Assembly: GCA_024278975.1 (NCBI GenBank) | Contig: JAJRSD010000072.1 | Coordinates: 62,001 to 126,000 of the forward strand | DNA from: Bacteroidota bacterium | GTDB taxonomy: Bacteria > Bacteroidota > Bacteroidia > Bacteroidales > Prolixibacteraceae | Direction: 5' to 3' | Length of the DNA: 64,000 bases | In this document: one piece after another, positions 14,675-31,719 of the stretch | Layout: every line of letters starts with the position of its first letter | How positions within the stretch are numbered: the stretch's first letter is position 1 | The notes under the pieces: model-generated | Seen by the model: the letters and a program-made list of their open reading frames with translations, nothing else | Database searches by the model: none | What the model was told of the DNA's origin: nothing | Position numbers and translations under genes: made by a program

Positions 14675-16117
14675 ATGAAACTGATTTTCAATTCACTTCT
14701 TATCCTTGTTGTTCTCCTCGTAACATCGTGCACACACCAAACCGACAAAAAAGCAGTTGTAAATAAACAACCTAATTTCGTAGTAGTGTTTATCGACGAC
14801 ATGGGTTACGGCGATATTGGTACACAAGGGGCAACCGGATGGACAACTCCCAACCTCGATAAAATGGCCAGCGAAGGAATGCGTTTTACTAATTTCTATT
14901 CGGCACAACCCGTTTGTAGTGCATCGCGCGCCGGATTACTTACTGGCTGCTATCCCAACCGAATTGGAATTTCAGGGGCATTATTTCCCCACGATAAAAA
15001 AGGAATAAATCCCAACGAAACCACAATTGCCGAAATGCTAAAAGAGAAAGGTTACGCCACGGCAATTTTTGGTAAATGGCATTTGGGACATCATAAAAAA
15101 TTCCTCCCACTACAAAACGGATTCGACGAATACACCGGATTGCCCTACTCAAACGATATGTGGACACTAAAATATGATGGAACCAAGCGCGAAAATTATC
15201 CCGAACTTCCTTTAATTGAAGGCAACGAAACAATTGAATACATTACAACTCTTGAGGGGCAGGATAAACTCACAACTCTTTATACCGAGAAAGCTGTTGA
15301 CTTTATAAATCGTAACTCCGACCAACCATTTTTCCTGTATGTTCCTCATTCAATGGGGCACGTTCCACTAGGTGTTTCCGATAAATTCAGAGGTAAAAGC
15401 GAGCAGGGTTTTTATGGCGATGTGATGATGGAAATAGATTGGAGTGTGGGTGAAATTGAAAAAGCATTGCAAGCAAACGGTATTTCAGAAAACACAGTAT
15501 TTATTTTTACTACCGACAACGGACCCTGGCTGAATTTTGGAAATCATGCCGGTTCGTCAGGTGGTTTGCGCGAAGGGAAAACCACCAGTTGGGAAGGTGG
15601 ACAGCGAGTTCCGTTTATTATTAAATGGCCTGCACAAACTCCTGCCGGAACAATTTGTAACAAGCTGGGTTGCGCCATCGACATACTTCCAAGTTTTGCT
15701 GAAATTGCCGAAGCTCAATTACCCGAATTGAAAATTGACGGAACAAGTATCGTTGATTTATGGGAAGGTAAACCAGATGCAAATCCACGGGAAACTATTC
15801 TTTTTTACTACGGAAAAAATAACCTGAACGGAGTACGAAAAGGAAATTGGAAACTGGTTCTGCCACACACCTGGCGGTCGTACAACACGAAACCCGGAAT
15901 GGACGGGATGGGCGGACAGCGAATTAAAATGACCGTTGAATCTCCTGAATTGTACAACATGATGCGCGACCCCGGCGAACAGTACAATGTTATTGAATAC
16001 AATCCTGAAAAAGTAAAAGAGTTGATGATAGTTGTTGAAGCCGCGCGCACCGAGTTGGGCGATTTAAACGTGGGAATTGAAAAAGGTTTGGGAACGAGAG
16101 AGATTGGTCGGAAGTAA
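14675..16117 (+). CDS. Sulfatase (arylsulfatase family S1), lipoprotein
   Basis: A 480-residue formylglycine-dependent sulfatase. Lipobox Cys19 ('LLVTSCTHQ') points to envelope anchoring. The metal-binding start 'FIDDMGYGDIG' (Asp41, Asp42) and the activation motif Cys81-Ser-Ala-Ser-Arg85 followed by 'AGLLTG' are present. The motif is the C-x-A-x-R variant of C-x-P-x-R. 'FGKWHLGHH' and 'FTTDNGPW' complete the active site. It would remove sulfate esters from a sugar. It ends 9 bases before the convergent GH2 gene. An anaerobic sulfatase-maturating enzyme must be encoded elsewhere; none is in the window. Confidence 0.9.
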   Translation: MKLIFNSLLILVVLLVTSCTHQTDKKAVVNKQPNFVVVFIDDMGYGDIGTQGATGWTTPNLDKMASEGMRFTNFYSAQPVCSASRAGLLTGCYPNRIGISGALFPHDKKGINPNETTIAEMLKEKGYATAIFGKWHLGHHKKFLPLQNGFDEYTGLPYSNDMWTLKYDGTKRENYPELPLIEGNETIEYITTLEGQDKLTTLYTEKAVDFINRNSDQPFFLYVPHSMGHVPLGVSDKFRGKSEQGFYGDVMMEIDWSVGEIEKALQANGISENTVFIFTTDNGPWLNFGNHAGSSGGLREGKTTSWEGGQRVPFIIKWPAQTPAGTICNKLGCAIDILPSFAEIAEAQLPELKIDGTSIVDLWEGKPDANPRETILFYYGKNNLNGVRKGNWKLVLPHTWRSYNTKPGMDGMGGQRIKMTVESPELYNMMRDPGEQYNVIEYNPEKVKELMIVVEAARTELGDLNVGIEKGLGTREIGRK

Positions 16118-16126
16118 AATATGACT

Positions 16127-19100
16127 TTAAAAAGGCTTAATTACCAACCTGTAATTTCCAACGCCCGGACGAACTCTGTATTTTTGTAACTGCCTGATTG
16201 CTGTACCTCCAACTCCCGAAACCTCGTAATCAATATTTAAAATTGTATTGGGCGACTCGTTTAACTGATAAGAATATATTGCCCGCGAAAGATTATCCGT
16301 AGAATATTTATGAACACTAAAATTGAACTGCTCGCCACCTTTTATCATCAAACCTTTTCCACTGTCGTTTTCAATTTTTAGCCAGCGTGTATCGGTCCGG
16401 TTTCCATAGTCTTGCGGCATAATATAGGGTACAAACATTTCGTCGGCAGTCGATTTATAAACGCCGGTTTTTGCCCCGGTTTTGCGGTCGGGATAAGTTT
16501 CGAACGGCCCGCGACCAAACCACTCAACAATATTAAACGCTTTTGGCAATTTAAATTGCAACCCAATTTTGGGTAACATTTCGGGCATATTTCCATGTGG
16601 AATAATTTCCTGTTCCAATTCAATAGTTCCGTCTGCAAGAATTGCCCATGTTTCGTTGCGCTCGAAAGCCGACGAATTGGTATTTTTTGTGATGCGATAA
16701 TTTGCCGGCAACGAAGAATTTGAAAATGCTTTTATACGAATTAAAACTTTTGATTTCGATATTTTTACAACCTCAATTTCATCAACTTGCGAAACCAAAT
16801 CGCGCATTCCCAAAGTTCGTAACTGGTTGTCGATACTACGACCAAAACCCGGTGTATTTATATTACTGTTGTATGTGTAACTTCCCCATGCATCAACATC
16901 GTTTGCAAGTGGTGCACGCCAAACATTAAACGCCGGACCACCTTGTAAATATTCCGTCCCATTAAATTTAAGCGAGCTAAATTCACCCCCGTTTTTATTG
17001 ATAATATATCTAAATTTATCACCCGAAATTGTAATCTCATTATCATTTTCAGACACTGTAACTTTACCCGTAATTTTTGGTTTTTCAACATAATAAACCG
17101 GTGTCGGAACGTGTAGCTGTTCCCATGCAATCTGATGAGCGGAATCTGCCCAGCTTAAATTCTGTTTCAGTTCAAAAGAGACCTGTAAAACGGCTTCCGA
17201 AAAAACCTCAATTTCCGGCATTCTGAATGGAATTGCAACTTGAGTAGATTGTTGCGCAGGCAAATCCAAATCGAAAAATCCACGTTGTGTGGTTTCTCCA
17301 TTTACCTGTAATTCCCAAACACCATTCAAATCATTTAAATTTTTAAAATGATGCCGGTTTGTAATTCTGACAATTCCGCTATCCATTTTTACCGCCTCAA
17401 TTTTAATGGGCTGCCCTGCCTTTTTTATCTGATAAATTTCGGGTTGAATTTCTCTGTCTGGCCAAACAATTCCGTAGGTTCTGCCGCCCAAACCAACACT
17501 ATAAAAATCACCCTCTTTTTTGTCGGTTTCAAAATCGATGTCGAGAACAGATCCTGTAGTAAAATCTTTCAGTTGCGAAACCGGAACTGCCTTGTCGAAA
17601 ATCTTTACATCGTCAATTATCATTTTCGACAGGCGACCGGAATATTCCCCGGCATCCTGCGTGTCGGCTTCGCGACCGATACAAAGTGGAAATGGTGTTG
17701 AACTGATATTCCCCGTAAATCCTGTTCTTGCAACCAGCTTTTCATCGATAAAAAGTTGTAATTCTTTACCGTTGTAAACTCCTGCAATATGATGCCACTC
17801 ACCATAAAAATCGCTGCCAACCTTTGTTTTTGCTGAAACTCGTTTTTCGCCATGAACGTAAAATTCTAAGGTTTTAGGATTCTCCATTCGTATTCCATAC
17901 TGAAATTTTCCCTTCGTAATAAAAGTATTTGGCTGTGGAATTTCAAACGGTTTTACCCAAAAGCCTATTGAAAGTTGGTTGCCGGTAATATTTAAACTTG
18001 GCGAGCGGTAAAATTCTACCCAATCGTCGTGGCCGGAAAATTCCAGTCCCCAGCCATTTGCTCCTTCCTGAAAAACCGGTCGTCCCATAATCTGACCATC
18101 ATTTTTATTGGGTGTAAAATCGGGAATTGTCCAGCGGGGCGTTTTCAAACCCGGGCTAATCCAATCCCAGATTGCACCACCTGTCAATCGCGGATATTTC
18201 CAAATCAGTTCCCAATATTCGTCCATTCCGCCAAGTCCGTTTCCGGTGGCAGCTAAATATTCGTCCATAAACGATGCACGTAAATCTTTTTCAGACAGAA
18301 CTTTTCCTTCAGCCAGATTTTTATAATCTATCGGAATCCAGTATCGCGGGCCAACCAAATCTTCAAACGGAATATAAAATGTGTTTCCACCGTACATCCA
18401 CGCCGGGCGGCTCGGGTCAATTGCTTTCCCTGTTTTAATTACTTCGTTAATATTAAATCCGCTGCCCGATTCGTTTCCGGCACTCCAGAGAATTACCGAC
18501 GGATGATTCCGGTCGCGATAAACAAGTTTACGAGAGCGGTCGCGATACATTTCTGTCCACTCTCTATTCGACGAAAGCTGCAAGTTGCTGTGTGCCTCAT
18601 CGCCAACTTCGTCAATAATATATATTCCCAGTTCATCTGCAAATTCAATATATTCGGGTGTTGGCGGATAGTGGCACGTACGTACACAATTAATGTTGAA
18701 TTGCTTCATAATCAGCAAATCCTTTTTTAGTGTTTTTAGCGGAACTGCCTGTCCGTGTTCGGGGGCGTGCATGTGGCTGTTTACACCGTTTAATTTAACG
18801 GGAACACCGTTTACAGTGAGTAAATTATTTTTGTATTCAACTTCGCGAAACCCAATTTTTTTTGTGAATGCTTCGATAGTTTTGCCCTCCCTGTTTTTCA
18901 ACTGAAAAAGAATGGTGAACAAGTTTGGAAACTCTGCCGACCATTTTGGTGGGTCGATTACCAGAGTTGAGATGGTAACTTTTTTAATCGAATCGGGATT
19001 AATTTTAAAATTTACTGATTGAATTCCATCCTTTAAAATAGATTTCTTATCCGTATCAAAAACATCGATTTCCAAAGTAAAAGTTGCGGTGTCGGATTTT

Positions 19101-19900
19101 GAATTTTGAATGTCGGTTTCAACAATCAGAGTTGCGTCTTTGTAATTTTTATCCAAATCAGTAACCACATAAAAATCGTGAATATAAGTTTTGGGTTGAG
19201 CGTACAATTTTACATCGCGGTAAATTCCCGACAGCCGCCACATATCCTGATTTTCGAGATACGAGCCATCGGAAAACCGAATTACCTTAACTGCCAAATC
19301 GTTTTCGCCTACTTCAACAAACTCTGTGATATTAAATTCTGCCGGCTCAAATCCCCCCTGATTGTAGCCAACCCGTTTACCATTTACCCAAATATACGAG
19401 GCAGATTTTATCCCTTCGAAACGGAGCATAATTTCTTTATCTTCCCAATTTTCGGGAATAGTAAACTTACGTTTATAGCAGCCAACCGGATTATAATAAT
19501 CTGGAATATTGGGAGGATTACTTTCAAAAGGGAGTGCAATATTTCTAAATTTAGGATGCCCGAAACCTTCCATCTGCCAGTTTGCAGGTACTCTTATTTC
19601 GTCCCAGTTTTCAACATCAAAATCGGGTTGCCAAAAATCTTCAGTAACCTGTGCGGGTGTTTCTACCCATTTGAATTTCCACTGCCCGTTTAATAACCGG
19701 TAATTTTCGCACTTGGCAGCTCTGTTTTTTAAAGCAGTTTTTTTTGATGAAAATGGGATATGAAAAGTGTGTGGTGCAGTTTGTCCTTTTTCGAAAATGG
19801 CGGGGTTCTGCCAGTCGGTTTCACTAAACTCTACTTCTTGCGAAGTTGCAAAACCATTCATAAAAAAAAGAAAGACAAAAACTAATAAAATTCGATTCAT
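16127..19900 (-). CDS. GH2 beta-galactosidase-type enzyme with LamG insertion
   Basis: A 1257-residue exported enzyme with a signal peptide (~1-20). In order: GH2 sugar-binding domain ('VPANWQMEGFGHPKFRNI'), immunoglobulin-like domain, GH2 TIM barrel ('NGVNSHMHAPEHGQ', 'NCVRTCHYP'), acid/base Glu in 'ILWSAGNESGSG', likely nucleophile Glu in 'SFMDEYLAATGN'. Then comes an inserted concanavalin-like LamG domain (~640-790; 'NQLSIGFWVKPF', 'WHHIAGVYNGKELQLFID'). A C-terminal Bgal_small_N domain follows ('SSLKFNGTEYLQGGPAFNVWRAP'). Length exceeds LacZ (1024) mainly because of the insertion, which probably binds the polymer. It is transcribed towards the sulfatase and probably controlled with the downstream AraC gene. 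Confidence 0.9.
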   Translation of the reverse strand: MNRILLVFVFLFFMNGFATSQEVEFSETDWQNPAIFEKGQTAPHTFHIPFSSKKTALKNRAAKCENYRLLNGQWKFKWVETPAQVTEDFWQPDFDVENWDEIRVPANWQMEGFGHPKFRNIALPFESNPPNIPDYYNPVGCYKRKFTIPENWEDKEIMLRFEGIKSASYIWVNGKRVGYNQGGFEPAEFNITEFVEVGENDLAVKVIRFSDGSYLENQDMWRLSGIYRDVKLYAQPKTYIHDFYVVTDLDKNYKDATLIVETDIQNSKSDTATFTLEIDVFDTDKKSILKDGIQSVNFKINPDSIKKVTISTLVIDPPKWSAEFPNLFTILFQLKNREGKTIEAFTKKIGFREVEYKNNLLTVNGVPVKLNGVNSHMHAPEHGQAVPLKTLKKDLLIMKQFNINCVRTCHYPPTPEYIEFADELGIYIIDEVGDEAHSNLQLSSNREWTEMYRDRSRKLVYRDRNHPSVILWSAGNESGSGFNINEVIKTGKAIDPSRPAWMYGGNTFYIPFEDLVGPRYWIPIDYKNLAEGKVLSEKDLRASFMDEYLAATGNGLGGMDEYWELIWKYPRLTGGAIWDWISPGLKTPRWTIPDFTPNKNDGQIMGRPVFQEGANGWGLEFSGHDDWVEFYRSPSLNITGNQLSIGFWVKPFEIPQPNTFITKGKFQYGIRMENPKTLEFYVHGEKRVSAKTKVGSDFYGEWHHIAGVYNGKELQLFIDEKLVARTGFTGNISSTPFPLCIGREADTQDAGEYSGRLSKMIIDDVKIFDKAVPVSQLKDFTTGSVLDIDFETDKKEGDFYSVGLGGRTYGIVWPDREIQPEIYQIKKAGQPIKIEAVKMDSGIVRITNRHHFKNLNDLNGVWELQVNGETTQRGFFDLDLPAQQSTQVAIPFRMPEIEVFSEAVLQVSFELKQNLSWADSAHQIAWEQLHVPTPVYYVEKPKITGKVTVSENDNEITISGDKFRYIINKNGGEFSSLKFNGTEYLQGGPAFNVWRAPLANDVDAWGSYTYNSNINTPGFGRSIDNQLRTLGMRDLVSQVDEIEVVKISKSKVLIRIKAFSNSSLPANYRITKNTNSSAFERNETWAILADGTIELEQEIIPHGNMPEMLPKIGLQFKLPKAFNIVEWFGRGPFETYPDRKTGAKTGVYKSTADEMFVPYIMPQDYGNRTDTRWLKIENDSGKGLMIKGGEQFNFSVHKYSTDNLSRAIYSYQLNESPNTILNIDYEVSGVGGTAIRQLQKYRVRPGVGNYRLVIKPF

Positions 19901-19950: not shown

Positions 19951-19970
19951 AGCCACAGATTCACTGATTA
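19951..19970. repeat. Dispersed repeat AGCCACAGATTCACTGATTA, copy 1
   Basis: The exact 20-base sequence recurs at 23387-23406, and with two changes at 25085-25104. Similar 'gccacagattcac' units are scattered in intergenic DNA of Bacteroidota. No coding role is seen. Confidence 0.55.
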
Positions 19971-20016
19971 GAAACACGTTTTGGTAATTATATTTGTAAG
20001 AATTTATGTCAGGAAA

Positions 20017-20103: not shown

Positions 20104-20973
20104 TTATTTTTTATGAAACTCCTTAAAATAGTTTGAAGGTGTGAAACCGGTGTGTTTTTTAAAGGTTCGGTTAAAGTTTGATAAATTGTTAAAACCACTC
20201 TCGAAACAGATTTGCGAGATAGACATTTTTGCTTCTATTATCAGTCGGCATGCATAACTTATTCGCATATCGTTTACAAATTCAGAAAGCGATTTGCCCG
20301 ATTTCTCTTTAAAAAATCGACAGAATGCCGAAGGATGTAAATTGGCAACTTCTGAAACTTTTTCTAATTCAATTTTTTCGAGATATTTCGTATTTATATA
20401 GTGCATTACTTTAACAAGGCGGTCGGTTGTAAAATCGTGATGTTCGGTTTGATACAACTCTCCTGCCAATAATTTATATTGGTCTGTTTTGGCCAGTAGC
20501 TGTAATAATTCGAGCAACAATAAAGTTCTTTCAAATCCCCTTGTTTTAGAGAGTTCTATCAATTTTTTTCCAAATTTTTTGGCAAAGTCAGATGAGAACC
20601 GAATGCCGCGTGATGAGCGTTCTAACAACTCTTTAATCAAATGAAACTCAGGATATTCAGAGATAACCTCCTTGAAAAATTCACTTGAAAACTGAACAAC
20701 AATATAATTTACAATTTTACTGTTTTCATCGGTATAGAACGATTCGTCGCTTTTCCAAAAATGGGGTAAATTACTGCCGAGTAAGACTAAATCTCCCGAA
20801 CTAAATTCTTCTATATTATCAGCAACAAAACTGGTTCCATTGCCATCAATCACAAATAAAATTTCGTATTCGTTATGGAAATGCCAGGGAAATGTAAAAT
20901 GAGGCATTTTACGCCATTTTACTTTAACGGCGGCACGTCCTGGGAAATCAATCTGTTCGTGCATCACTTTCAT
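20104..20973 (-). CDS. AraC family transcriptional regulator with cupin sensor domain
   Basis: A 289-residue regulator. The N-terminal half (~15-110) is a cupin-like ligand pocket ('FPWHFHNEYEILFVIDGNGT', 'GDLVLLGSNLPHFW'). The C-terminal ~100 residues are a double helix-turn-helix ('HPSAFCRFFKEKSGKSLSEF' ... 'ISQICFESGFNNLSNFNRTF'). This layout is typical of sugar-responsive activators. It lies divergently from the UROD operon (107-base gap) and upstream of GH2 on the same strand, so it is the likely switch for the glycan genes on both sides. The ligand is unknown. Confidence 0.88.
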   Translation of the reverse strand: MKVMHEQIDFPGRAAVKVKWRKMPHFTFPWHFHNEYEILFVIDGNGTSFVADNIEEFSSGDLVLLGSNLPHFWKSDESFYTDENSKIVNYIVVQFSSEFFKEVISEYPEFHLIKELLERSSRGIRFSSDFAKKFGKKLIELSKTRGFERTLLLLELLQLLAKTDQYKLLAGELYQTEHHDFTTDRLVKVMHYINTKYLEKIELEKVSEVANLHPSAFCRFFKEKSGKSLSEFVNDMRISYACRLIIEAKMSISQICFESGFNNLSNFNRTFKKHTGFTPSNYFKEFHKK

Positions 20974-21080: not shown

Positions 21081-22139
21081 ATGACTAACGAACAATGGGA
21101 ACTTCTACTAAAAACCGTTAATGGCGAAACTCCAAAGAATCCGGTTACCGGTTTCATTATCGACAGCCCGTGGATTCCGGGGTGGGCAGGAGTTTCAACG
21201 CTTCAGTTTTACTCTTCAGAAGAGACATGGTTTCAAGCCAATAAAAAGGCAATCGAGACTTTTCCCGATACTATTTTTCTTCCTGGATTTTGGTCGGAGT
21301 TTGGAATGTTAACAGAACCTTCGGCATTTGGAGCAAAACTTATTTGGAACGAATTTAACCTGCCACATGCCGAAAAAATTATTAGTGACGTTTCGCAAGC
21401 CGGAACTTTAATTAATCCCAATCCGAAAACCGACGGACTTCTGCCTTTTATTATTCAGCGTCTGTTAAACTATCAGGAACCGATGTTAAAAATGGGTCAC
21501 GAAACTAAGTTTGCAATTGCTCGCGGACCTCTGAATATCGCTTCATTTTTAATGGGAACTACCGAATTGATGACGGGTTTAATGATGGATCCGGAGAACA
21601 GTCATAAACTATTAGAAACTATTACCCAGTTTTCAATTAATTGGATTCAGTACCAGAAAGAGATGTTTCCGGGTATCGAAGGCATTTTGATTTTAGACGA
21701 TATTGTTGGTTTTATTGGCGACGAAGAGTGCAAGGAATTTGCTGTGCCGTACATAAAAAGAATTTTTGATGCATTCGATTCAAAAATCAATTTCTTTCAT
21801 AACGATGCGCAGGGATTAATTTCGACACCTTATTTAAAGGAGATGAATGTTAACCTTTACAACTTCAGTTTCGAACATTCGATGAAAGAGATAAGAGAGT
21901 TGGCAGGCTCTGAAATTGCGTTGATTGGGAATTTGCCACCGAGAGATATTTTGGCGCAGGGAACTGTGGAACAAGTTCGCGAAGAAACCAGCAAAATGGT
22001 TCGTGATTTTGGGGATAAAAATAGGGTAATCTGGTCGTGTGGAGGTGGAATGCCGCAGGATGTAACAACTGATAACATAAATGCGTTTATAGAAACTATT
22101 AACGAAGAAGTTCCGAAATTGAAAAAAATATTAGTATGA
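21081..22139 (+). CDS. Uroporphyrinogen decarboxylase (UROD) family protein, MtaA/CmuA-like
   Basis: A 352-residue TIM-barrel protein of the UROD superfamily ('IARGPLNIASFLMGTTELM', 'GILILDDIVGFIGDEE', 'NLYNFSFEH', 'ALIGNLPP'). It is probably not a haem enzyme: it heads a glycan operon. Methyltransferase members such as MtaA bind zinc through His-x-Cys and a later Cys. Here the equivalent positions look like His240-Asn-Asp242 ('FFHNDAQG') and Cys320 ('WSCGGGMPQDVTTDN'), so a metal site with an Asp replacing one Cys is likely. A methyl-transfer role on a methylated sugar or cofactor is a guess. Its stop overlaps the next start by 4 bases. Confidence 0.75.
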   Translation: MTNEQWELLLKTVNGETPKNPVTGFIIDSPWIPGWAGVSTLQFYSSEETWFQANKKAIETFPDTIFLPGFWSEFGMLTEPSAFGAKLIWNEFNLPHAEKIISDVSQAGTLINPNPKTDGLLPFIIQRLLNYQEPMLKMGHETKFAIARGPLNIASFLMGTTELMTGLMMDPENSHKLLETITQFSINWIQYQKEMFPGIEGILILDDIVGFIGDEECKEFAVPYIKRIFDAFDSKINFFHNDAQGLISTPYLKEMNVNLYNFSFEHSMKEIRELAGSEIALIGNLPPRDILAQGTVEQVREETSKMVRDFGDKNRVIWSCGGGMPQDVTTDNINAFIETINEEVPKLKKILV

Positions 22140-23377
22140 AAAAAATAATTTTAATCTTATTTTGTATTATTTCTTCCCAACTTTTTGCACAAGAGTTGGC
22201 AAAATTCACTGTTCAAATTGATGACGAAAGAATTGACGCTCCGGTTTCGGTTTCGTTAGACGGAATTAATTATAATACCGACAAAGGAGATCTGGTTCTT
22301 TATGAAATAACAAAAGGGAGTGAAAAGGTGATTCCAAGCCAGCTTGAACCCGGATATTCAGCCAGACTTTGGTTTGTTTTAAAAGGTGTTTCAAAGAAGA
22401 ATTCAACAAGAAAATTTATTCTGAAATTAGAGGATAAAAAATTGTTAGTAGAGCAAAAAGTAGAGCTGCAAAAGGACAATAAAAATATTGGATTGTCGGT
22501 AAATAATCATGATATATTAAAGTATCGGTATGCAACAATTTACCCACCCGTTGGAATTAATCCACTCTATCAACGCTCCGGTTTTATTCATCCGTTAACA
22601 TCTCCGGGCGGCGAAGTTCTCACTCGTATTCAGGCTCCCGACCATTACCACCACTATGGAATTTGGGGTCCGTGGACAAAAACTCATATCGATGATCGTT
22701 CGGTTGATTTCTGGAACCTTGTTTTAGGGGAGGGGACTGTGAAATTTGCCGGTTTTCTTTCGGAAACTGAAGGAGCAGTTTTTAGTGGTTTTAAAGCTTT
22801 GCAGCAACACATCGACTTTGGGGCAAAAGGTGCCGACCAGATTGCAATGAACGAAATTCTCGATGTTCGTGGCTGGAATGTTGGAGAAAAAGTGTGGGTG
22901 GTCGATTATACAACTTCTTTAAATAGTCCATTGGAAAATGGAATAATGTTGAATGCGTATCGTTATGGTGGTGGAATTGGTTTTCGTGCAACAGAAACAT
23001 GGAATAAAGATAATTGTACAGTACTCACTTCCGACAACAAAACGCGGATTGATGCTGACGGTTCCTACGCTCGTTGGTGTTTGGTTGAAGGAGAATCAGG
23101 TGTTAAAGAAGGTCGTTCGGGAATACTATTTTTAAGTCACCCGGCAAACCGGATGCATCCCGAGCCGATGCGTGTTTGGCCATTGGATGCCAACAACGGA
23201 CGCGGCGATATGTATTTCGAATTTGTACCAATTCGCCACGACGACTGGAAACTGGAACCAAAACAGAATTATACTTTAAAATATAGAATGGTTATATTTG
23301 ATGGTGAAATGGATGCAAAAACTGCCGAAATGTATTGGAACAGCTTTGCAGGAAATCCGAAGATTGAATTCTATTAG
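22136..23377 (+). CDS. DUF6807 (PmoA family) secreted protein
   Basis: A 413-residue exported protein with a Sec signal ending near 'SSQLFAQE'. The body (~130-410) matches DUF6807, annotated as PmoA family: 'PVGINPLYQRSGFIHPLTSPGG', 'DHYHHYGIWGPW', 'GILFLSHPANRMHPEPMRVWP', 'YTLKYRMVIFDGEMD'. The His-rich segment around 'YHHYG' may form a ligand or metal site. The biochemical role is not established; members cluster with sugar dehydrogenases. It overlaps the UROD gene by 4 bases (ATGA). Its last ~185 bases are duplicated at 24888-25075. Confidence 0.8.
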   Translation: MKKIILILFCIISSQLFAQELAKFTVQIDDERIDAPVSVSLDGINYNTDKGDLVLYEITKGSEKVIPSQLEPGYSARLWFVLKGVSKKNSTRKFILKLEDKKLLVEQKVELQKDNKNIGLSVNNHDILKYRYATIYPPVGINPLYQRSGFIHPLTSPGGEVLTRIQAPDHYHHYGIWGPWTKTHIDDRSVDFWNLVLGEGTVKFAGFLSETEGAVFSGFKALQQHIDFGAKGADQIAMNEILDVRGWNVGEKVWVVDYTTSLNSPLENGIMLNAYRYGGGIGFRATETWNKDNCTVLTSDNKTRIDADGSYARWCLVEGESGVKEGRSGILFLSHPANRMHPEPMRVWPLDANNGRGDMYFEFVPIRHDDWKLEPKQNYTLKYRMVIFDGEMDAKTAEMYWNSFAGNPKIEFY

Positions 23378-23499
23378 AAAATGAATAGCCACAGATTCAC
23401 TGATTAAGAATTTAAGAATAAAGAATTGTGAAAAAACTAATTGGCTTATTGTTAATTGTTCTTACCACTTTTTCGTTTGCAGGAGAGAAAAAGGTTAAC
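23191..23499 (+). repeat. Direct repeat, copy A (DUF6807 3' end plus signal-peptide leader)
   Basis: This ~310-base stretch recurs at 24888-25202. The first ~174 bases differ at only four positions. The intergenic part is more diverged. The final ~60 bases encoding the signal peptide MKKLIGLLLIVLTTFSFAG are identical. The two copies flank the sulfatase gene. Confidence 0.85.
23387..23406. repeat. Dispersed repeat AGCCACAGATTCACTGATTA, copy 2
   Basis: Identical to the 20-mer at 19951-19970. It lies inside direct repeat copy A, just before the sulfatase start. Confidence 0.5.
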
Positions 23500-24816
23500 T
23501 TGGTGTTAGAAAAACAACGAGATATGAATATTCTCATGATAACAACGCACGATCTTGGTCAGCACCTTGGCTGCTATGGAATTGAAACTGTAAATACTCC
23601 CAACATTAACAGGTTGGCAGATAAAGGAATTATGTTCAGAAATTTCTATTCGACTTCGGCAGTGTGCTCCCCCGGAAGGGCAAGTTTACATACCGCACGT
23701 TATCCACAGTCGAATGGTTTAATGGGACTTATTCACAGCCCTTGGTGGTGGAGTTTTAATGAGAACGAAAAACATACGGCTCAACTTTTAAAGAATGTTG
23801 GTTACAGAACAATATTGGTAGGCTTCAACCATGTTGGTAAACCTACAAAGTTAGGTTACAATCAACACTTGTCGGTAAAAAACAAAGCGGAAGATACGGT
23901 TTATGAAGTTTGTGAGTTCCTGAAAAAAGAATCAGAGACAAACGAACCATTTTTCCTAAAAGCAGGATTTACCGAAGTTCATCGCCCTTTCGACTATGGG
24001 AGTGATAGTACCAAAGGAATATTTGTGCCGGAATATCTTGCCAACACAAAAATAATGCGGGACGATTTGGCTCAATTTCAAGCTGAAATTAAATATTTTG
24101 ATTCATGTGTTGGTAGAATACTAAAGGCTCTCGACGACAGTAAAATAGCTGAAAATACACTTGTAATATTTACTGCTGACCATGGGATTCCTTATCCAGG
24201 ATCGAAATGGGCAGCACGAAAAGCCGGCTTAGAGGTTCCTTTCATTATTTACAAAAAAGGTGAAAAAGCTTTTTCGGGAGGACACGTATATGACGAAGTG
24301 ATGAGTAATGTTGATGTACTCCCAACTCTGTTCGACTACCTTGGAATTGCCAAACCAAAAAACTTTGAAGGAGTAAGTTTCTGGGATTTTTTAAATAAAA
24401 AAGTAAATAAAGCACCTCGTACAGAAGCATTTGGTCAATACACTCCTGACATGAAACGTGATAATGAATCACGCACCGTTATTACGGAAAAATATCAGTT
24501 AATATACTACTTCAATGCAGGGCGGTCGGTTAAATACCCAGCCAATGTAAATCCGGTGGAATTTGCCAGACACCGAGAGCGTTGCAGCACTACAGGAACA
24601 CGTCCATTTATACAATTATATGACATTCAAAAGGATCCATATGAACTACATAATCTTTCAAAAAATGAATCTTATAAAGAAATAATTGAAACCCTCACAA
24701 ACAAACTTTACAACTGGATGCATGAGGTAAACGATCCAATTTTAAAAGGGCCTATTGCTTCACCATACTACACGAAGGCTATGCAAAACCTAAATGAGAT
24801 GATAAAAAATTATTAA
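23428..24816 (+). CDS. Sulfatase (family S1) with borrowed ThuA signal peptide
   Basis: A 462-residue formylglycine sulfatase: 'MNILMITTHDLGQHLGCYG' metal-binding start and activation motif Cys80-Ser-Pro-Gly-Arg84 ('AVCSPGRASLHTARYP'), with 'FTADHGIPYPGSKW' later. Residues 1-24 (MKKLIGLLLIVLTTFSFAGEKKVN) equal the N-terminus of the ThuA protein at 25131, base for base over ~60 bases. The mature homology begins only near residue 33, where a second Met may be the ancestral start. The start codon here is GTG, but ATG in the ThuA copy. So the enzyme was fused in frame to a duplicated leader and is exported by it. It lies within the operon, between the DUF6807 and ThuA genes. Confidence 0.88.
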   Translation: MKKLIGLLLIVLTTFSFAGEKKVNLVLEKQRDMNILMITTHDLGQHLGCYGIETVNTPNINRLADKGIMFRNFYSTSAVCSPGRASLHTARYPQSNGLMGLIHSPWWWSFNENEKHTAQLLKNVGYRTILVGFNHVGKPTKLGYNQHLSVKNKAEDTVYEVCEFLKKESETNEPFFLKAGFTEVHRPFDYGSDSTKGIFVPEYLANTKIMRDDLAQFQAEIKYFDSCVGRILKALDDSKIAENTLVIFTADHGIPYPGSKWAARKAGLEVPFIIYKKGEKAFSGGHVYDEVMSNVDVLPTLFDYLGIAKPKNFEGVSFWDFLNKKVNKAPRTEAFGQYTPDMKRDNESRTVITEKYQLIYYFNAGRSVKYPANVNPVEFARHRERCSTTGTRPFIQLYDIQKDPYELHNLSKNESYKEIIETLTNKLYNWMHEVNDPILKGPIASPYYTKAMQNLNEMIKNY

Positions 24817-24853
24817 GTCGAAAAGAAAATTTAAATAATTCAAATTAATAAAA

Positions 24854-25077
24854 ATGAAACGAAGAGACTTTCTAAAAAACACAGTAGCAACAACGGACGC
24901 GGCGATATGTATTTTGAATTTGTACCAATTCGCCACGACGACTGAAAACTGGAACCAAAACAGAATTATACTTTAAAATATAGAATGGTTATTTTTGATG
25001 GTGAAATGGATGCAAAAACTGCCGAAATGTATTGGAATAGCTTTGCAGGAAATCCGAAGATTGAAATGATTTATTAA
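24854..25077 (+). pseudogene. Chimeric remnant: Gfo/Idh gene start fused to DUF6807 gene end
   Basis: Bases 24854-24894 (ATG, 'MKRRDFLKNTVATT') closely match the start of the Gfo/Idh gene at 26874 (four mismatches in 41). At 'caacaac' the sequence switches to a copy of the 3' end of the DUF6807 gene (23191 onward). The frame from the ATG meets TAA after 40 codons (24974-24976). In the DUF6807 frame a TGG has become TGA. It therefore makes no useful product. It marks the right-hand junction of the rearrangement that placed the sulfatase here. Confidence 0.8.
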
Positions 25078-25202
25078 GAAAAATAGCCACATATTCACTG
25101 ATTGAAATTAAAATTTAAAAATAAAAAATTATGAAAAAACTAATTGGCTTATTGTTAATTGTTCTTACCACTTTTTCGTTTGCAGGAGAGAAGAAAGTAA
25201 AT
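24888..25202 (+). repeat. Direct repeat, copy B
   Basis: Copy of 23191-23499. Here the DUF6807 part is a non-coding remnant, while the signal-peptide part is the genuine start of the ThuA gene. The left boundary falls in a shared CAACAAC, suggesting a microhomology junction. Confidence 0.85.
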
Positions 25203-25895
25203 GTTAAAGGGAAACAGATATTAATTTACACAAAAAATGGTGAAGGTTACGTTCACGAAAACATTGCTGAAAGTGTAAAAGCACTTCAGGAAATCTGCAA
25301 AAAAGAGGGCATTAAAACCGATGTTTCCGACGACCCTTCTGTATTTACTGCCAAAAACTTAAAGAAGTACGATGCCATCTATTTTTCGAACAGTAATAAC
25401 GAAGGTTTCGATACAGAAGCACAGAAAAAAGCATTTCAGGATTTTTGTCGGAGTGGAAAAGGTTTTGCAGCTCTCCACTCGGCAAATGCAACCGAAAGAG
25501 AGTGGCCGTGGTACTGGCAATTAGTAGGCGGTAAATTTGTAAGGCATGCACCATACCAGGAATTTGACGTGGTGGTTGTTGATGCAAATAATCCGTCAAC
25601 ATCGCCCTTGCCAAAACGGTGGACAATTGAAGACGAGTGTTACTACTCTTTTCAGCTAAACCCTGATATTCATGTTTTGCTTGCCGCCGATATGACAACT
25701 ATCGAGGACAAAGGAAAAGCAGAATATCCGGGCGACACATTTTTCGAAAGTTTCCCGCTGTGCTGGTGTCACGAATTTGAAGGAGGACGACAGTGGTACT
25801 CTGCATTGGGACACAATCCGAAGTTTTATAAAGACGAAACTTTCAGGGCACATCTTCGAGGTGGGATTCTGTGGATTTTAGGTGTTAATAACTAA
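25131..25895 (+). CDS. ThuA-like domain protein, secreted
   Basis: A 254-residue protein: signal peptide (1-19), then a ThuA glutamine-amidotransferase-like fold. It shows 'ILIYTKNGEGYVHENIAESV', 'YDAIYFSNSNNEGFD', 'FQDFCRSGKGFAALHSANAT', 'DECYYSFQLNPDIHVLLA' and a C-terminal 'RQWYSALGHNPKFY'. ThuA was named from trehalose use, where ThuAB works through 3-keto sugars. Homologues are frequent beside Gfo/Idh oxidoreductases in glycan loci. The catalytic function is unproven. It ends 12 bases before the second DUF6807 gene. Its leader is the source of the duplicated sulfatase signal peptide. Confidence 0.85.
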   Translation: MKKLIGLLLIVLTTFSFAGEKKVNVKGKQILIYTKNGEGYVHENIAESVKALQEICKKEGIKTDVSDDPSVFTAKNLKKYDAIYFSNSNNEGFDTEAQKKAFQDFCRSGKGFAALHSANATEREWPWYWQLVGGKFVRHAPYQEFDVVVVDANNPSTSPLPKRWTIEDECYYSFQLNPDIHVLLAADMTTIEDKGKAEYPGDTFFESFPLCWCHEFEGGRQWYSALGHNPKFYKDETFRAHLRGGILWILGVNN

Positions 25896-25907: not shown

Positions 25908-26801
25908 ATGAAAAATATAATACTACTGTTACTATTTTTTTCAATCACGACTTTTAATGTGATTGGACAGACAAAGGTTACTGCTGAAAAAGTTGGTGAC
26001 AAAATTGAATTTCGTGTAAATGGAAATCTGTTTACTAATTATATTATTTCAGAAAGTGAAAAGTATCCTTTCTTTTTTCCGGTAAACGGACCATCGAAAG
26101 CAACTGTTACCTCCATGCGAAATGCAAATTATCCACATCATAGTTCTCTGTTTTTTGGTTGCGACAGGGTAAATGGCGGAAACTGGTGGCAAGAAGGATT
26201 AGAACGTGGGCAAATATTATCTTTGCGTGCCGATATTCTTGAAACAGGAGGCAACAAAGCTGTTGTTGAAAATGAATGTATTTGGCGACGCCCCGGTGCA
26301 GATGCGCCTATAAAAGATAAACGTACAATTACTGTTACCGCCCCATCGAAAGATAAATTTTATATCGATTTCGATATTACCATGGAAATGCTCGAAGATG
26401 TTACCATTCTAAAAACAAATCATTCTCTTTTTAGCGGACGGATGGATGCTGATCTTGCTGTTACAAACGGAGGAACCATAATAAATGCTGAAGGAGAAAC
26501 CGGAGAAAAAGGTACATTCGGGAAACGTTCGGCATGGATTGACTACAACGGGAAAAGAATGGGTGGCATTGAAGGAATGGCAATTTTGCAACATCCGTCG
26601 AACGAGTGGTTTCCTGCGCCGTGGTTTACCCGCGATTATGGATTTTTCTCGCCAACACCAATGTACTGGCCCGAAAATGAAAAAACTACAGAACTTAAAA
26701 AAGGAGAAAAAATTACTTTGCGTTACCGCGTAATTGTACATGCAGGCGATGAAAAAGAAGCTAAAATTGCAGAGGAGTTTGAAAAATATAAAAAAGAGTA
26801 G
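25908..26801 (+). CDS. DUF6807 (PmoA family) secreted protein, second copy
   Basis: A 297-residue exported protein with signal peptide to about 'FNVIGQ'. It matches DUF6807: 'YPFFFPVNGPSKATVTSMRN', 'YPHHSSLFFGCDRVNGGNWW', 'GGIEGMAILQHPSNEWFPAPWF' and 'ITLRYRVIVHAGDEKEA'. It is shorter than the first copy (413) and diverged from it, so the two are paralogues with different N-terminal regions rather than a recent duplicate. It is co-directional with ThuA upstream and Gfo/Idh downstream (72-base gap). Confidence 0.78.
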   Translation: MKNIILLLLFFSITTFNVIGQTKVTAEKVGDKIEFRVNGNLFTNYIISESEKYPFFFPVNGPSKATVTSMRNANYPHHSSLFFGCDRVNGGNWWQEGLERGQILSLRADILETGGNKAVVENECIWRRPGADAPIKDKRTITVTAPSKDKFYIDFDITMEMLEDVTILKTNHSLFSGRMDADLAVTNGGTIINAEGETGEKGTFGKRSAWIDYNGKRMGGIEGMAILQHPSNEWFPAPWFTRDYGFFSPTPMYWPENEKTTELKKGEKITLRYRVIVHAGDEKEAKIAEEFEKYKKE

Positions 26802-26873
26802 GATGGAAGACCAGAGACGGCATAAAATTACTCTACTAAAAAATAGCATCAAAATAAATTAAAAACGATAACT

Positions 26874-28247
26874 ATGAAACGAAGAAATTTTCTAAAAAAC
26901 ACAGTTGCTACAACTGCCGGGGCAATAATTATCCCTTCAATTGTACCATCGTCGGTATTTGGTAAAAGCGCACCAAGTAACAAAATTAATGTCGGGCAAA
27001 TTGGTTGCGGACGAATTGCACGCACACACGACATGCCCGGAACAATGCAACACGAAGTTGCCCGAATGATTGCTGTTTCCGATTTAGATAGTAACCGGAT
27101 GAAAGACGGCAAAAAGTTAGTTGAAGACTTCTACAAAAAGAAAACAGGCAGTGACAATGCTGTTGATGTAAAAATGTATGGTGACTACAAAGAGATGCTT
27201 TTAAATAAAGATATTGATGCAGTAGTTATTAGTACTCCCGATTTTTGGCACTCGCAGCCAGCAATAGAAGCGGCACTCGCCGGAAAAGATATTTATCTGC
27301 AAAAACCAACATCGCTAACAGTTACGGAAGGTAGATTGTTAAGCGACATAGTACATAAACAAGGTGCTATTTTACAAGTGGGTACACAACAACGCTCATC
27401 TTCACAATTCAGACGTGCAGCAGAATTAGTTCGTAATGGTAGAATTGGGAAAGTTCATACAGTAAAAATCGGACTGCCCGGCGATCCATCAGGACCGGAA
27501 GCGGAAGAGATGCCAATTCCATCGAGCCTGAACTACGATATGTGGCTCGGTTCAACTCCAGAAGTTCCTTATACTGAGATTGGTGTTCATCCGCAAAAAG
27601 GATACAGTCGCCCCGGTTGGTTACGTATTGAACAATACGGTGCAGGAATGATTACCGGTTGGGGACAACACCACTACGATTCGGCATCATGGGGAATGGA
27701 CACAGAACACACCGGACCAATTTCGGTTGAAGCAATTGCACAATTCCCAAAATCGGGGCTGTGGAATGTACATGGCGATTTTATGGTGAAACACGAATAC
27801 GAAAATGGTATGACTGTATTTACCAGCGGTGGTTATCCAAATGGAATCAGGTACGAAGGCGAAGACGGATGGATTTTTGTAACTCGCGGTGCTTATCGTG
27901 CAACCCCGTCTGACCCAATTCCCGAAGGTTCAACAAATGCATTGGATGCCAGTAGCGACGAAATACTGAAATCTGTAATTGGAGATGATGAAATTCATCT
28001 TTATGTAAGCGACGAACAGCATGGTAACTGGTTAGATTGTATCCAGTCGCGCAAGCAACCAATCTCTCCTGTAGAAATAGGTCATCGTGCATGCTCGGTT
28101 TGTTTAATCAGCCACATTGCAATGAAAGTTCCGGGTATATTAAACTGGAATCCTAAAACAGAAAAGTTCTCGGATAACGATTTGGCAAACTCGATGTTAA
28201 GCCGTCCACAACGTTATCCGTATGGAACAAGTTATGTGAAACGATAA
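26874..28247 (+). CDS. Gfo/Idh/MocA family oxidoreductase, Tat-exported
   Basis: A 457-residue NAD(P)-dependent sugar oxidoreductase. A twin-arginine signal (MKRRNFLKNTVATTAG) implies export in folded form, presumably with its cofactor. The Rossmann motif 'VGQIGCGRIARTHD' and the catalytic-region motif 'LQKPTSLTVTEG' (QKP in place of the common EKP) are present. The C-terminal half is the usual alpha/beta substrate domain ('GWLRIEQYGAGMITGWGQHH'). Related exported enzymes oxidise sugars, including at C3. It closes the operon before a terminator at 28251. A fragment of its start, or of a close paralogue, is found at 24854. Confidence 0.88.
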   Translation: MKRRNFLKNTVATTAGAIIIPSIVPSSVFGKSAPSNKINVGQIGCGRIARTHDMPGTMQHEVARMIAVSDLDSNRMKDGKKLVEDFYKKKTGSDNAVDVKMYGDYKEMLLNKDIDAVVISTPDFWHSQPAIEAALAGKDIYLQKPTSLTVTEGRLLSDIVHKQGAILQVGTQQRSSSQFRRAAELVRNGRIGKVHTVKIGLPGDPSGPEAEEMPIPSSLNYDMWLGSTPEVPYTEIGVHPQKGYSRPGWLRIEQYGAGMITGWGQHHYDSASWGMDTEHTGPISVEAIAQFPKSGLWNVHGDFMVKHEYENGMTVFTSGGYPNGIRYEGEDGWIFVTRGAYRATPSDPIPEGSTNALDASSDEILKSVIGDDEIHLYVSDEQHGNWLDCIQSRKQPISPVEIGHRACSVCLISHIAMKVPGILNWNPKTEKFSDNDLANSMLSRPQRYPYGTSYVKR

Positions 28248-28617: not shown

Positions 28618-31600
28618 ATGCAAAAACTACTATTGCTATTAATGGTGTTTATTGTAACTATCAGTAGTACAATGGCACAAAAAGCTGTTACAGGTAATGT
28701 AACAGCTGACGATGGTTCGCCGCTTCCCGGTGTTACTGTCGTTGTAAAGGGAACCACTACTGGTACAGTTACCGACGTAGATGGAGTTTACTCTCTCTCG
28801 ATACCGGATGGTGCAAAAACACTTCAGTTTTCGTTTATCGGAATGAAAACAAATGAAGTAGAAATTGGCGATCAATCTACAATCAGCGTAACAATGGAAC
28901 CCGATGTGATTGGACTTGAGGAAGTTATCGCAATTGGTTACGGTACAGTTAAAAAGAAAGATTTAACGGGTGCTGTTACTCAAATTAATGCTGAAAAGTT
29001 GGAGACAGAATCAACTGCAAACATGACCGATGTTTTAAGGGGTAGTGTTGCAGGCTTAAATGTAAACTTTAGTAACAGCGCAAAAGGGTTAAGTAGTGCG
29101 AGCGACATGTTGATCAGGGGTGAAACTTCTGTAAGAACAAGTGCAAGTGCTCAAAGTTCAGCAAATGCTCCTTTAATTGTTTTGGATGGAATGATCTATT
29201 ACGGCGACCTTTCTGATATTAACAGCAACGATATTCAGGCATTCGATATTTTAAAAGATGCCTCTTCGGCAGCTATTTATGGTTCGAGAGCTGCGAATGG
29301 TGTTATTATTATTACTACCAAAAAGGGTAAAAGAGGAAAACCAATGATTAACCTAAGTGCCAGTGTTGGTGCAGCAACTATTGCACATACCGCACTCGAC
29401 TGGATGACTGGCCCTCAGTTTATCGATTGGAGAATTGCAGGTTTTGAGGCTAACGAGAGACATCAGGTAAAAAAACCTGGTTATTATGATAGTTTTGAGA
29501 ACTCAGGAGTTGATCTTGATACGTGGAAAAACTACGATGGCTCGGGTGCTGCAAGCGATTTAGATCAAATTTGGTTACAACGGCTTGGTTTTTCTCCATT
29601 AGAAATTACCAATTATGAAAATGGGTATAGCGAAGATTGGAAAGACATTATGTACTAAACAGGTTTAAGACAAGATTATAGTTTTAGTTTAAGCGGTGCG
29701 TCAGACGAAGTTCAATACTATTGGTCGTTAGGCTACACAAACAATGAAGGTATTCGATATAATGAAGGGTTTGAGTCAATACGTTCCAGAATTAACCTGG
29801 AGATGAAAGTGACTGATTGGTTAAAAATGGGAACCAATACACAATTTGCAGTTCGCGACCAAAGCCAAGTTGTTTCGAGTGATAATTTTGGTTCGGTAAC
29901 TCCTTATTCTCAAATGTACGAACCTCTTCCTGATGGAAGCGGTTGGTCAGATATTTTGGAATATGCACCAAGTGGAAATATTTCAGCATCTCGTAATCCA
30001 TGGTTAAATCTGGAGTATCAAGATCAATCGAGTATTTATAATACATTAAATAGTAAAATTTATGCAACTATAACATTGCCTTATGGTTTCTCTTTTACTT
30101 CTGAATACATAACCCGTTTTGAATGGGAGAGATGGTACAGAAGCGATTCTTCAGAACATCCTGACTGGGGGAAACAAGGAGGTATTGCACGCAGAAGAAA
30201 TACAACTCGTTTCGGATGGCAATTAAATAATATTGTAAAATGGAATAAAACTTATGGCGAGCACTCGTTTGATTTTACATTCCTGCAAAATGCTGAGAAA
30301 AATCAGTACTGGAGAGATTATATGGTTAGAAAACAATTTCAACCAAACGATGTATTAGGTTACCACAGAATGCAGGCAGCTACAGAAGATGTTGAAATTT
30401 CGAGTAACGATACTTACAGCACGGCTGATGCTTTGATGGCACGTTTAAATTATATTTTCAAAGGGAAATATGCATTAACAGGTTCCTGGCGTCGAGATGG
30501 ATACTCTGCATTTGGTCAGTCTAATCCAAGAGCCAATTTCGGTTCTGCTGCTTTTGCATGGACAATGAGTGAAGAAGATTTCTTCGATGTAAGCTGGGTT
30601 GATATGTTAAAATTAAGACTCTCTTATGGTGACAATGGTAACCGTGGAGTTGGAACTTACGATGCAATGTCGCAACTGGCAACCGGCAAATATGTTTTAC
30701 AAACTGATGGAACAGCACACTATGTATCCCAACTTTATTCAAGCAGGATGGCAAATTCTGAATTAAAATGGGAAAGAACGACTGCATATAATCTTGGAAT
30801 TGACTTCTCAACATTTAACGGAAGATTAAGAGGAAATATTGAAGGTTATTTAATGCAAACAACCGATCTTCTTATTCCACGTAAACTTCCCGAAATTACT
30901 GGTTATTCGAGTGTGTATTCTAATCTTGGACAAATTAACAACCGTGGTTTTGAGGTTTCTTTAACTTCAATAAACATGCAAAAGAACGATTTTGAATGGA
31001 CTACTGATTTATCGTTGGCGTTTAATCGTAACGAAATTATTAGCCTCTATGGAGATTTAGATGAAGAAGGCAACGAATTGGACGATGTTACAAACCGCTG
31101 GTTTATTGGTCATGCGTTAGATGAGATATGGAACTATCAAACAGATGGAATCTGGCAAGTTGAAGAAGCTGAAGAAGCAGCAAAATATTCGCGTTCTCCC
31201 GGTGATTATAAAATTATTGATACTGATGGTGATGGATATTACACCAACGACGATAAAGTATTTCAGGGTTATTCGAAACCACCATGGCGTATTAATTTAC
31301 GTAACGATTTTAAATACAAAAATTTTGAAGCCGGAATTAAAATGTATGCACATTTAGGCTTTAAAACTGCTAATAACCATTTACGTAATAACGACGTATT
31401 TTACGACAGAGGTTCTTCATTTAATGTTCCTTATTGGACACCTGAAAACCCAAGTAATACGTGGGCATCAGTAGAAAGTTATGAATCAGGTTTTACCGTT
31501 TATGAAGACAACTCTTTTTTAAGAATTGATAACTTGTCGGTATCATACAACTTCCCTACAGAACTACTTCAAAGAGTTCAAATTGAAAGATGTAAACTTT

Positions 31601-31719
31601 CGTTTATTGCATCAAACCCGTATGTATTTACAAGCTGGTCGTGGATGGATCCAGAGAGGGGTTCTACGTGGGGATATACTCCATCTACTTATTCTCTTAA
31701 ACTGAACCTAACACTATAA
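28618..31719 (+). pseudogene. susC: SusC family TonB-dependent outer-membrane transporter, interrupted by in-frame TAA
   Basis: A full-length SusC-type glycan importer (1034 codons). It has a signal peptide, a carboxypeptidase-D-like domain (~20-95; 'VTGNVTADDGSPLPGVTVVV'), a TonB box/plug region ('IAIGYGTVKKKDLTGAVTQI') and 'ILKDASSAAIYGSRAANGVI'. A 22-strand barrel ends in 'YTPSTYSLKLNLTL'. TAA at 29656-29658 splits it after 'WKDIMY'. The same frame resumes with 'TGLRQDYSFSLSGASDEVQ'. Homologues I recall have Gln here ('QTG'), so a CAA to TAA change fits. If real, the SusCD importer is inactive; if a base error, it is intact. SusD follows 9 bases later. Confidence 0.85.

What the first reader, a model, noticed from the sequence alone, without database searches (positions are those of the whole stretch)
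23191..25202. Sulfatase gene spliced in frame onto a duplicated ThuA signal peptide between ~310-bp direct repeats
Seen: 23191-23499 and 24888-25202 are direct copies (four mismatches in the first ~174 bases, ~60 identical bases over the signal peptide). Copy A ends in the sulfatase; copy B ends in ThuA. The unique DNA between them is the sulfatase body plus the first ~40 bases of a Gfo/Idh-like gene, fused at CAACAAC to the DUF6807 3' end. Inference: the ancestral order was DUF6807-ThuA. A sulfatase with the start of a following oxidoreductase gene was captured from elsewhere, with duplication of the junction, and gained export from the ThuA leader. This is an exon-shuffling-like origin of a secreted enzyme in bacteria.
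Basis: partly seen in the sequence, partly recalled or inferred. Interest (0 to 1): 0.8.

Follow-up and report, generated by a model that had tools for sequence, protein, structure and literature searches.

The report
Sulfatase gene inserted behind borrowed leader
In one bacterial lineage a gene for a sulfate-removing enzyme was inserted between two operon genes so that it took over its neighbour's export signal while a duplicated stretch kept both neighbours whole; it is a clear snapshot of how bacterial enzymes can swap export signals, by a mechanism of a known sort.

Summary
23191-23368 and 24888-25065 are direct copies (4 mismatches in 178), 61 identical bases cover the ThuA leader, and the sulfatase is read in frame behind that leader. 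The right join is CAACAAC, shared by the start of a Gfo/Idh gene and the DUF6807 3' end. In five of nine fetched ThuA loci DUF6807 lies directly upstream of ThuA, with no sulfatase between in any of the five; in two more relatives DUF6807 lies directly upstream of Gfo/Idh. So the sulfatase is a lineage-specific insertion. The 41-base stub is best matched by Gfo/Idh genes of this same operon type, so a related operon is the likely donor; it was not found. The seven relatives found at 50-59% identity all seem to have leaders of their own, so a leader swap is likelier than a gain of export, though a leaderless donor is not excluded. And it was not one clean duplication: the copies differ by 2% in the DUF6807 part, 17-23% between genes, 0% over the leader, and at all four codons just after it. 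Reads could not be checked.

The parts
20104..20973 (-). Regulator gene divergent from the operon (AraC type; name recalled, no family scan)
   Evidence: ORF; matches in L071, L072, L073, L075
21081..22139 (+). URO-D family protein
   Evidence: PF01208 E 1.1e-33
22136..23377 (+). First DUF6807 protein, intact; its 3' end is copy A of the repeat
   Evidence: PF14100 E 6.1e-59
23191..23368 (+). Repeat copy A, DUF6807 3' part
   Evidence: 4 mismatches in 178 to 24888-25065
23369..23428 (+). Repeat copy A, intergenic part, more diverged; holds GCCACAGATTCACTGATTAA
   Evidence: 10 of 58 or 14 of 60 mismatches, by aligner
23429..23489 (+). Leader-coding tract identical to ThuA's (61 of 61)
23428..24816 (+). 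Leader-sulfatase fusion gene, 462 aa, GTG start, S1_8-like, CSPGR motif (Cys80 at 23665-23667)
   Evidence: PF00884, PF16347; nearest solved chains 9bb9 (S1_8A sulfatase) and 4mhx (SGSH)
23524..23526 (+). In-frame ATG (codon 33), possible former start
   Evidence: upstream 20 bases: 48th percentile of 81 starts, 98th of 910 internal ATGs, 94th of 440 post-leader windows; but codon 35, not a start, scores the same
24817..24853 (+). Intergenic DNA brought in with the sulfatase
   Evidence: sequence; 24837-24912 is 79% to 26857-26932 at the downstream Gfo/Idh start
24854..24894 (+). First 41 bases of a Gfo/Idh gene (MKRRDFLKNTVATT)
   Evidence: 38/41 to L071, 37/41 to the window's own and to G009, 36/41 to L073, 35/41 to L072 operon Gfo/Idh
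24888..24894 (+). CAACAAC: right join
24888..25065 (+). Repeat copy B, DUF6807 3' remnant; one difference makes a stop in the old frame
25066..25130 (+). Repeat copy B, intergenic part
25131..25895 (+). ThuA gene, intact, with its own leader
   Evidence: PF06283 E 2e-61
25908..26801 (+). Second DUF6807 protein
   Evidence: PF14100 E 2.5e-63
26874..28247 (+). Gfo/Idh/MocA oxidoreductase, intact
   Evidence: PF01408, PF19051; NF058561 far below its cut-off

Best explanation
A lineage-specific insertion of about 1.4 kb placed an S1_8-like sulfatase gene, plus the first 41 bases of a following Gfo/Idh gene, between the DUF6807 and ThuA genes of a sugar-degradation operon. The sulfatase frame now begins with ThuA's signal peptide, behind a copy of ThuA's upstream region (shown by sequence). 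A duplication of roughly 310 bp, covering the DUF6807 3' end, the gap and the ThuA leader, left both neighbours intact (shown). The right end was joined by illegitimate recombination at a 7-base overlap (anatomy shown, mechanism inferred). The left end was most likely anchored by homology, the donor being a related operon of the same type in which the sulfatase sat just upstream of Gfo/Idh, perhaps in ThuA's place (inferred). The uneven divergence of the copies means that part of copy A came with the donor or that the copies were later partly homogenised by gene conversion (inferred). The product is most likely an exported sulfatase whose old leader was replaced by ThuA's (inferred).
For: DUF6807 directly upstream of ThuA with no sulfatase in 5 of 9 fetched ThuA loci; of the other 4, three show no DUF6807 match and one contig ends in ThuA. 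DUF6807 directly upstream of Gfo/Idh, with neither ThuA nor sulfatase, in G009 and G026 (L108, L109). Repeats and join; overlap of 7 or more in 68 of 692,050 random products, 6e-4 when weighted. The stub search of 140 family genomes gave 36 with a match; the three best places outside the own genome (G001, G009, G026) are operon Gfo/Idh genes, 78-85% identical in protein to the window's, and so are those of G019 and G045 further down. In G031 the sulfatase relative follows the SusD that best matches this operon's SusD (51%, next 45%). The 7 relatives found at 50-59% identity carry leaders of their own.
Against: No donor with this sulfatase before this Gfo/Idh was found. The stub's protein start is a common leader type: genes of G008 and G028 with only 31-34% Gfo/Idh matches, and an own-genome gene without any, also match it at 30-33 of 41. 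The 61-base identical tract beside 17-23% divergence fits no single event well. In G171 the SusD beside the sulfatase ranks second, not first (cut by the contig end). Expression and the GTG start are untested.
Confidence: 0.75

Rival explanations
1. Gain of export: the donor sulfatase was leaderless, starting at codon 33 (23524), and its former untranslated bases now code the linker between leader and enzyme.
For: The 20 bases before codon 33 score like a start: 48th percentile of 81 starts, 98th of 910 internal ATGs, 94th of 440 post-leader windows. The residue at that place is Pro in 11 of 14 relatives read (G031, 13 loci) and Met in none, but Met here. Several of the more distant relatives (35-39%) look leaderless by eye.
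Against: Codon 35, which is no start, scores the same as codon 33 (3.52 and 3.49). The 7 relatives found at 50-59% have leaders. LVLEKQRD aligns weakly with the mature N-terminus of the G171 sulfatase.
Confidence: 0.3
2. Replication template switching: in one event the fork left the ThuA leader for the sulfatase and returned, through CAACAAC, about 310 bp upstream.
For: The anatomy fits: forward copy, foreign stretch, backward return with duplication.
Against: It predicts roughly even divergence; observed 4/178, 10/58 to 14/60, 0/61 and 4/12. Fisher tests on slightly lower hand counts (13/62, 9/58) gave 8e-6 and 6e-4, and 5e-4 for the four codons against the leader; the segments were chosen after looking, so these are too favourable.
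Confidence: 0.3
3. Assembly artefact from mixed strains.
For: 115-contig draft; no reads available.
Against: The right join overlaps by only 7 bases, short for usual assembly graphs (recalled); the copies differ at many positions; the site is well inside a 154-kb contig.
Confidence: 0.07
4. The sulfatase was always there and relatives lost it.
For: None found.
Against: The DUF6807 remnant and the Gfo/Idh stub are marks of insertion; the 5 relatives with DUF6807-ThuA have no sulfatase between.
Confidence: 0.03

Closest known systems
Homology-facilitated illegitimate recombination (HFIR); PMC3240628, abstract and introduction read
   Same: One end joined at a microhomology (3-10 bp in most cases), foreign DNA of about 1 kb put in, other end anchored by homology
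   Different: HFIR generally deletes resident DNA of similar size; here about 310 bp were duplicated, and the left anchor is inferred
Displacement of T6SS effector genes in Vibrio cholerae; PMC5361080, six passages seen
   Same: New module put in at a conserved upstream anchor, older downstream parts kept; HFIR-like mechanism proposed
   Different: There the older effector gene is displaced; here both neighbours stay intact and an export leader is shared out
Merodiploids made by transformation in Streptococcus pneumoniae; PMC3784515, abstract read
   Same: Incoming DNA leads to duplication of resident DNA
   Different: Duplications there are about 100-900 kb, by unequal crossing-over between repeats
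S1_8 sulfatases (PDB 9bb9, 9bbd) and human SGSH (4mhx)
   Same: Among the nearest solved structures by sequence
   Different: Subfamily membership and substrate not tested

Membership tests
HFIR-type insertion | Microhomology of 3-10 bp at one join | tested here: met
   7 bases CAACAAC, taking the donor to be like L071-L073; 5 if like the local gene
HFIR-type insertion | Homologous anchor at the other end, with donor sequence | tested here: inconclusive
   Stub points to a related operon; uneven copy divergence fits a donor flank; donor not found
HFIR-type insertion | Deletion of resident DNA | tested here: not met
   About 310 bp duplicated; no operon gene missing against L071
Type I (S1) sulfatase | PF00884 domain above the gathering score | tested here: met
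   139.6 bits against 25
Type I (S1) sulfatase | C-x-P-x-R motif for formylglycine | tested here: met
   CSPGR, Cys80
Type I (S1) sulfatase | Maturation enzyme in the genome | tested here: inconclusive
   anSME model TIGR03942: one weak hit below the cut-off; the model passes its cut-off in 2 of 14 controls; FGE type not tested
Sec-exported protein | n-, h- and c-regions with a cleavage site | not tested
   MKKLIGLLLIVLTTFSFA|GEKK by eye only; no signal-peptide predictor was run
Target-site duplication by a transposon | Short fixed-size duplication with terminal inverted repeats or a transposase | tested here: not met
   310-bp imperfect duplication; none of 6 inverted pairs of 20 nt or more spans the two joins (shorter ones not sought); the only frame of 80 aa or more listed inside the insert is the sulfatase

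The most novel reading that the evidence does not exclude
A leaderless cytoplasmic sulfatase became an exported one in a single lineage by landing behind a duplicated copy of a neighbour's leader, its former untranslated bases becoming the linker, while the duplication spared every resident gene.
Probability: 0.27. Interest if true: 0.6.

Novelty: new variant of a known kind. Interest (0 to 1): 0.42.

Why it matters
Export leaders are thought to be exchanged in bacterial evolution (recalled), but intermediates are seldom caught with their joins. Here both joins, the duplicated flank, the dead remnant and the uninterrupted order in relatives can be read in one place. It shows a route by which a gene can enter an operon, take upstream region and export signal from a neighbour, and cost the neighbour nothing. 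It is also a testable case of how sugar-degradation loci gain enzymes.

Tried and rejected
Donor search for the sulfatase: own genome, 148 relatives (E 1e-40), 140 family genomes (E 1e-70), 393 order genomes (E 1e-70), 395 class and 395 phylum genomes (E 1e-90; the sets overlap), genome contigs twice (none; 14 loci, by two short peptide patterns), viral contigs (none), plasmids (best listed 44.6%). Nothing above 59% identity turned up. Only 11-12 candidates per genome were scored, so a miss is weak evidence.

Rejected: a recent copy of the local Gfo/Idh gene as source of the stub, since it is 83% over 62 bases to that gene while the DUF6807 parts are 98%. Uninformative: base composition; the sulfatase body (GC 0.380, GC3 0.323) lies inside the operon's range (0.377-0.430; 0.279-0.382). 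Rejected: the short intergenic repeat as join site; it lies inside both copies. Dropped: a motif count of the residue before the conserved Asn (20 sequences, 19 Pro, 1 Gly), because its pattern misses the window's own class; the reading replaced it.

In one search the stub's ATG was scored one base off; one search has the right place. only found where the files were. My hand counts of intergenic mismatches (13/62, 9/58, used) were recounted as 14/60 (MAFFT) and 10/58 (pairwise).

Papers: searches listed 10 of 15, 10 of 10, 10 of 41, 8 of 30 and 15 of 20 papers. The listings showed no leader capture of this kind; that is no proof of absence. PMC11111574 was read in abstract only and not used.

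Full report
What is there. The operon reads URO-D (21081-22139), DUF6807 (22136-23377), sulfatase (23428-24816), ThuA (25131-25895), a second DUF6807 (25908-26801) and Gfo/Idh (26874-28247), then SusC and SusD (the SusC name is recalled). The DUF6807 3' parts, 23191-23368 and 24888-25065, differ at 4 of 178 positions. The leader tracts 23429-23489 and 25132-25192 are identical over 61 bases. The sulfatase is in frame with the copied leader.

The right join. 24854-24894 is the start of a Gfo/Idh gene and runs into the DUF6807 3' end through CAACAAC (24888-24894, equal to 23191-23197). Of 692,050 distinct joins between the first 600 bases of the local Gfo/Idh gene and the DUF6807 gene, 68 have an overlap of 7 or more; weighted by join positions the share is 6e-4. 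The donor's bases there are unknown: the overlap would be 7 with the Gfo/Idh genes of L071-L073 and 5 with the window's own. Copy B is a remnant; one of its four differences makes a stop in the old DUF6807 frame.

The ancestral order. A ThuA search of 149 genomes gave 79 with a match. I fetched nine wider loci with the best matches. In five, L071 to L075, DUF6807 lies directly upstream of ThuA with no sulfatase between. L076, L077 and L079 show no DUF6807 match, and the contig of L080 ends in ThuA. L077 has a different sulfatase (25% identical) right before ThuA. L071 is the closest relative (ThuA 91%) and matches from the gene at 16127-19900 to SusD. In two further relatives, G009 and G026, DUF6807 lies directly before Gfo/Idh, without ThuA (L108, L109). 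The stretch between DUF6807 and Gfo/Idh thus varies: nothing, ThuA, or ThuA plus a second DUF6807. The sulfatase is an insertion in the window's lineage. Genomes with weaker ThuA matches were not fetched in width.

Where it came from. Among 140 family genomes the sulfatase body has two relatives at E 1e-70 or better besides itself: G171 (59%) and G031 (56%). Samples of 393, 395 and 395 genomes of the order, class and phylum gave only the window's own. A pattern scan of genome contigs gave 14 loci, one of them G171; five more, from KSB1 and planctomycete-type MAGs, lie at 51-57%. Thirteen locus ids (L090-L102; L103-L105 were left out, L092 repeats G171) were compared with the window's proteins: none shows ThuA, and only L099 shows a Gfo/Idh match, weak (31% over 97 residues), about 1.8 kb upstream on the other strand. 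In G031 the sulfatase follows SusD, and that SusD is the best match of the window's SusD in the genome (51%, next 45%); in G171 the neighbouring SusD, cut by the contig end, ranks second. The sulfatase therefore seems to belong with this type of uptake system.

The stub. Searched in 140 family genomes it gave 36 with a match. The three best places outside the own genome, in G001, G009 and G026, are all Gfo/Idh genes of this operon type (78-85% identical to the window's protein), as are those in G019 and G045; those in G008 and G028 are more distant Gfo/Idh genes (31-34%), and others are unrelated. Over the 41 coding bases the stub is 38/41 to L071, 37/41 to the window and to G009. A donor operon of the same type, with the sulfatase before Gfo/Idh and perhaps in ThuA's place, is the simplest source. 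It was not found.

Swap or gain. G031 and G171 have hydrophobic Sec-like leaders; L093 to L097 begin with RR-x-F leaders of the TAT kind (by eye). So the 7 relatives found at 50-59% seem exported, and a leader swap is the likelier event. Against this, the residue before the first conserved Asn is Met in the window, and the bases before that ATG (23524) score like a start: 48th percentile of 81 starts, 98th of 910 internal ATGs, 94th of 440 windows behind 44 leader-like N-termini. But codon 35 scores the same, so this is weak. A leaderless donor remains possible.

Not one clean duplication. The DUF6807 parts differ by 4/178, the intergenic parts by 10/58 or 14/60 with gaps, the leader by 0/61, and the next four codons, KKVN in both copies, by 4 of 12 bases, all silent. 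Fisher tests with lower hand counts gave 8e-6 and 6e-4 for intergenic against DUF6807, and 5e-4 for KKVN against the leader. The segments were chosen after looking. One recent duplication followed by even drift does not give this; donor-derived flank in copy A, or later gene conversion, would. That the four codons agree in protein and differ at every third base suggests that the leader-sulfatase fusion may be older than its arrival here. This rests on few sites.

Function. The protein has PF00884 and SGSH_C domains and a CSPGR motif, and is near S1_8 sulfatases and human SGSH among solved structures. Substrate is unknown. The genome gave 89 matching stretches to it but no anSME over the TIGR03942 cut-off.

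Verdict. A real, well-preserved insertion with leader capture and a neighbour-sparing duplication. The class of mechanism is known; the combination is a new variant of it.

Noticed in passing
window 28618-31719: The SusC-type frame has one in-frame stop (29656-29658), while the ortholog in L071 is open over the matched stretch. A broken transporter gene or a sequence error.
   Followed up: partly
L090 1622-3001: The G171 sulfatase has RSPGR in place of CSPGR, so it may be inactive, or the base is an error.
   Followed up: no
window 24854-24976: The Gfo/Idh stub and copy B form a chimeric 40-codon frame starting MKRRDFLKNTVATTDAAICILNLYQFA; probably accidental.
   Followed up: no
window 14675-16117 and L077 5817-7271: A different sulfatase near the operon is 76% identical to one directly upstream of ThuA in G018, so a sulfatase beside ThuA recurs.
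   Followed up: partly
window 19952-19971, 23388-23407, 25086-25105: Short intergenic repeat GCCACAGATTCACTGATTAA, three copies in the window against 0.02 expected; related stretches on two other contigs of the genome.
   Followed up: partly
G000 genome: Many sulfatase matches but no anSME gene over the TIGR03942 cut-off; FGE-type maturation was not tested.
   Followed up: partly
between DUF6807 and Gfo/Idh in L072-L075, L108, L109, L115: The gene content here varies among relatives: L072-L075 lack the second DUF6807, L108 and L109 also lack ThuA, L115 has the second DUF6807 before Gfo/Idh. The spot seems prone to gene gain and loss.
   Followed up: partly
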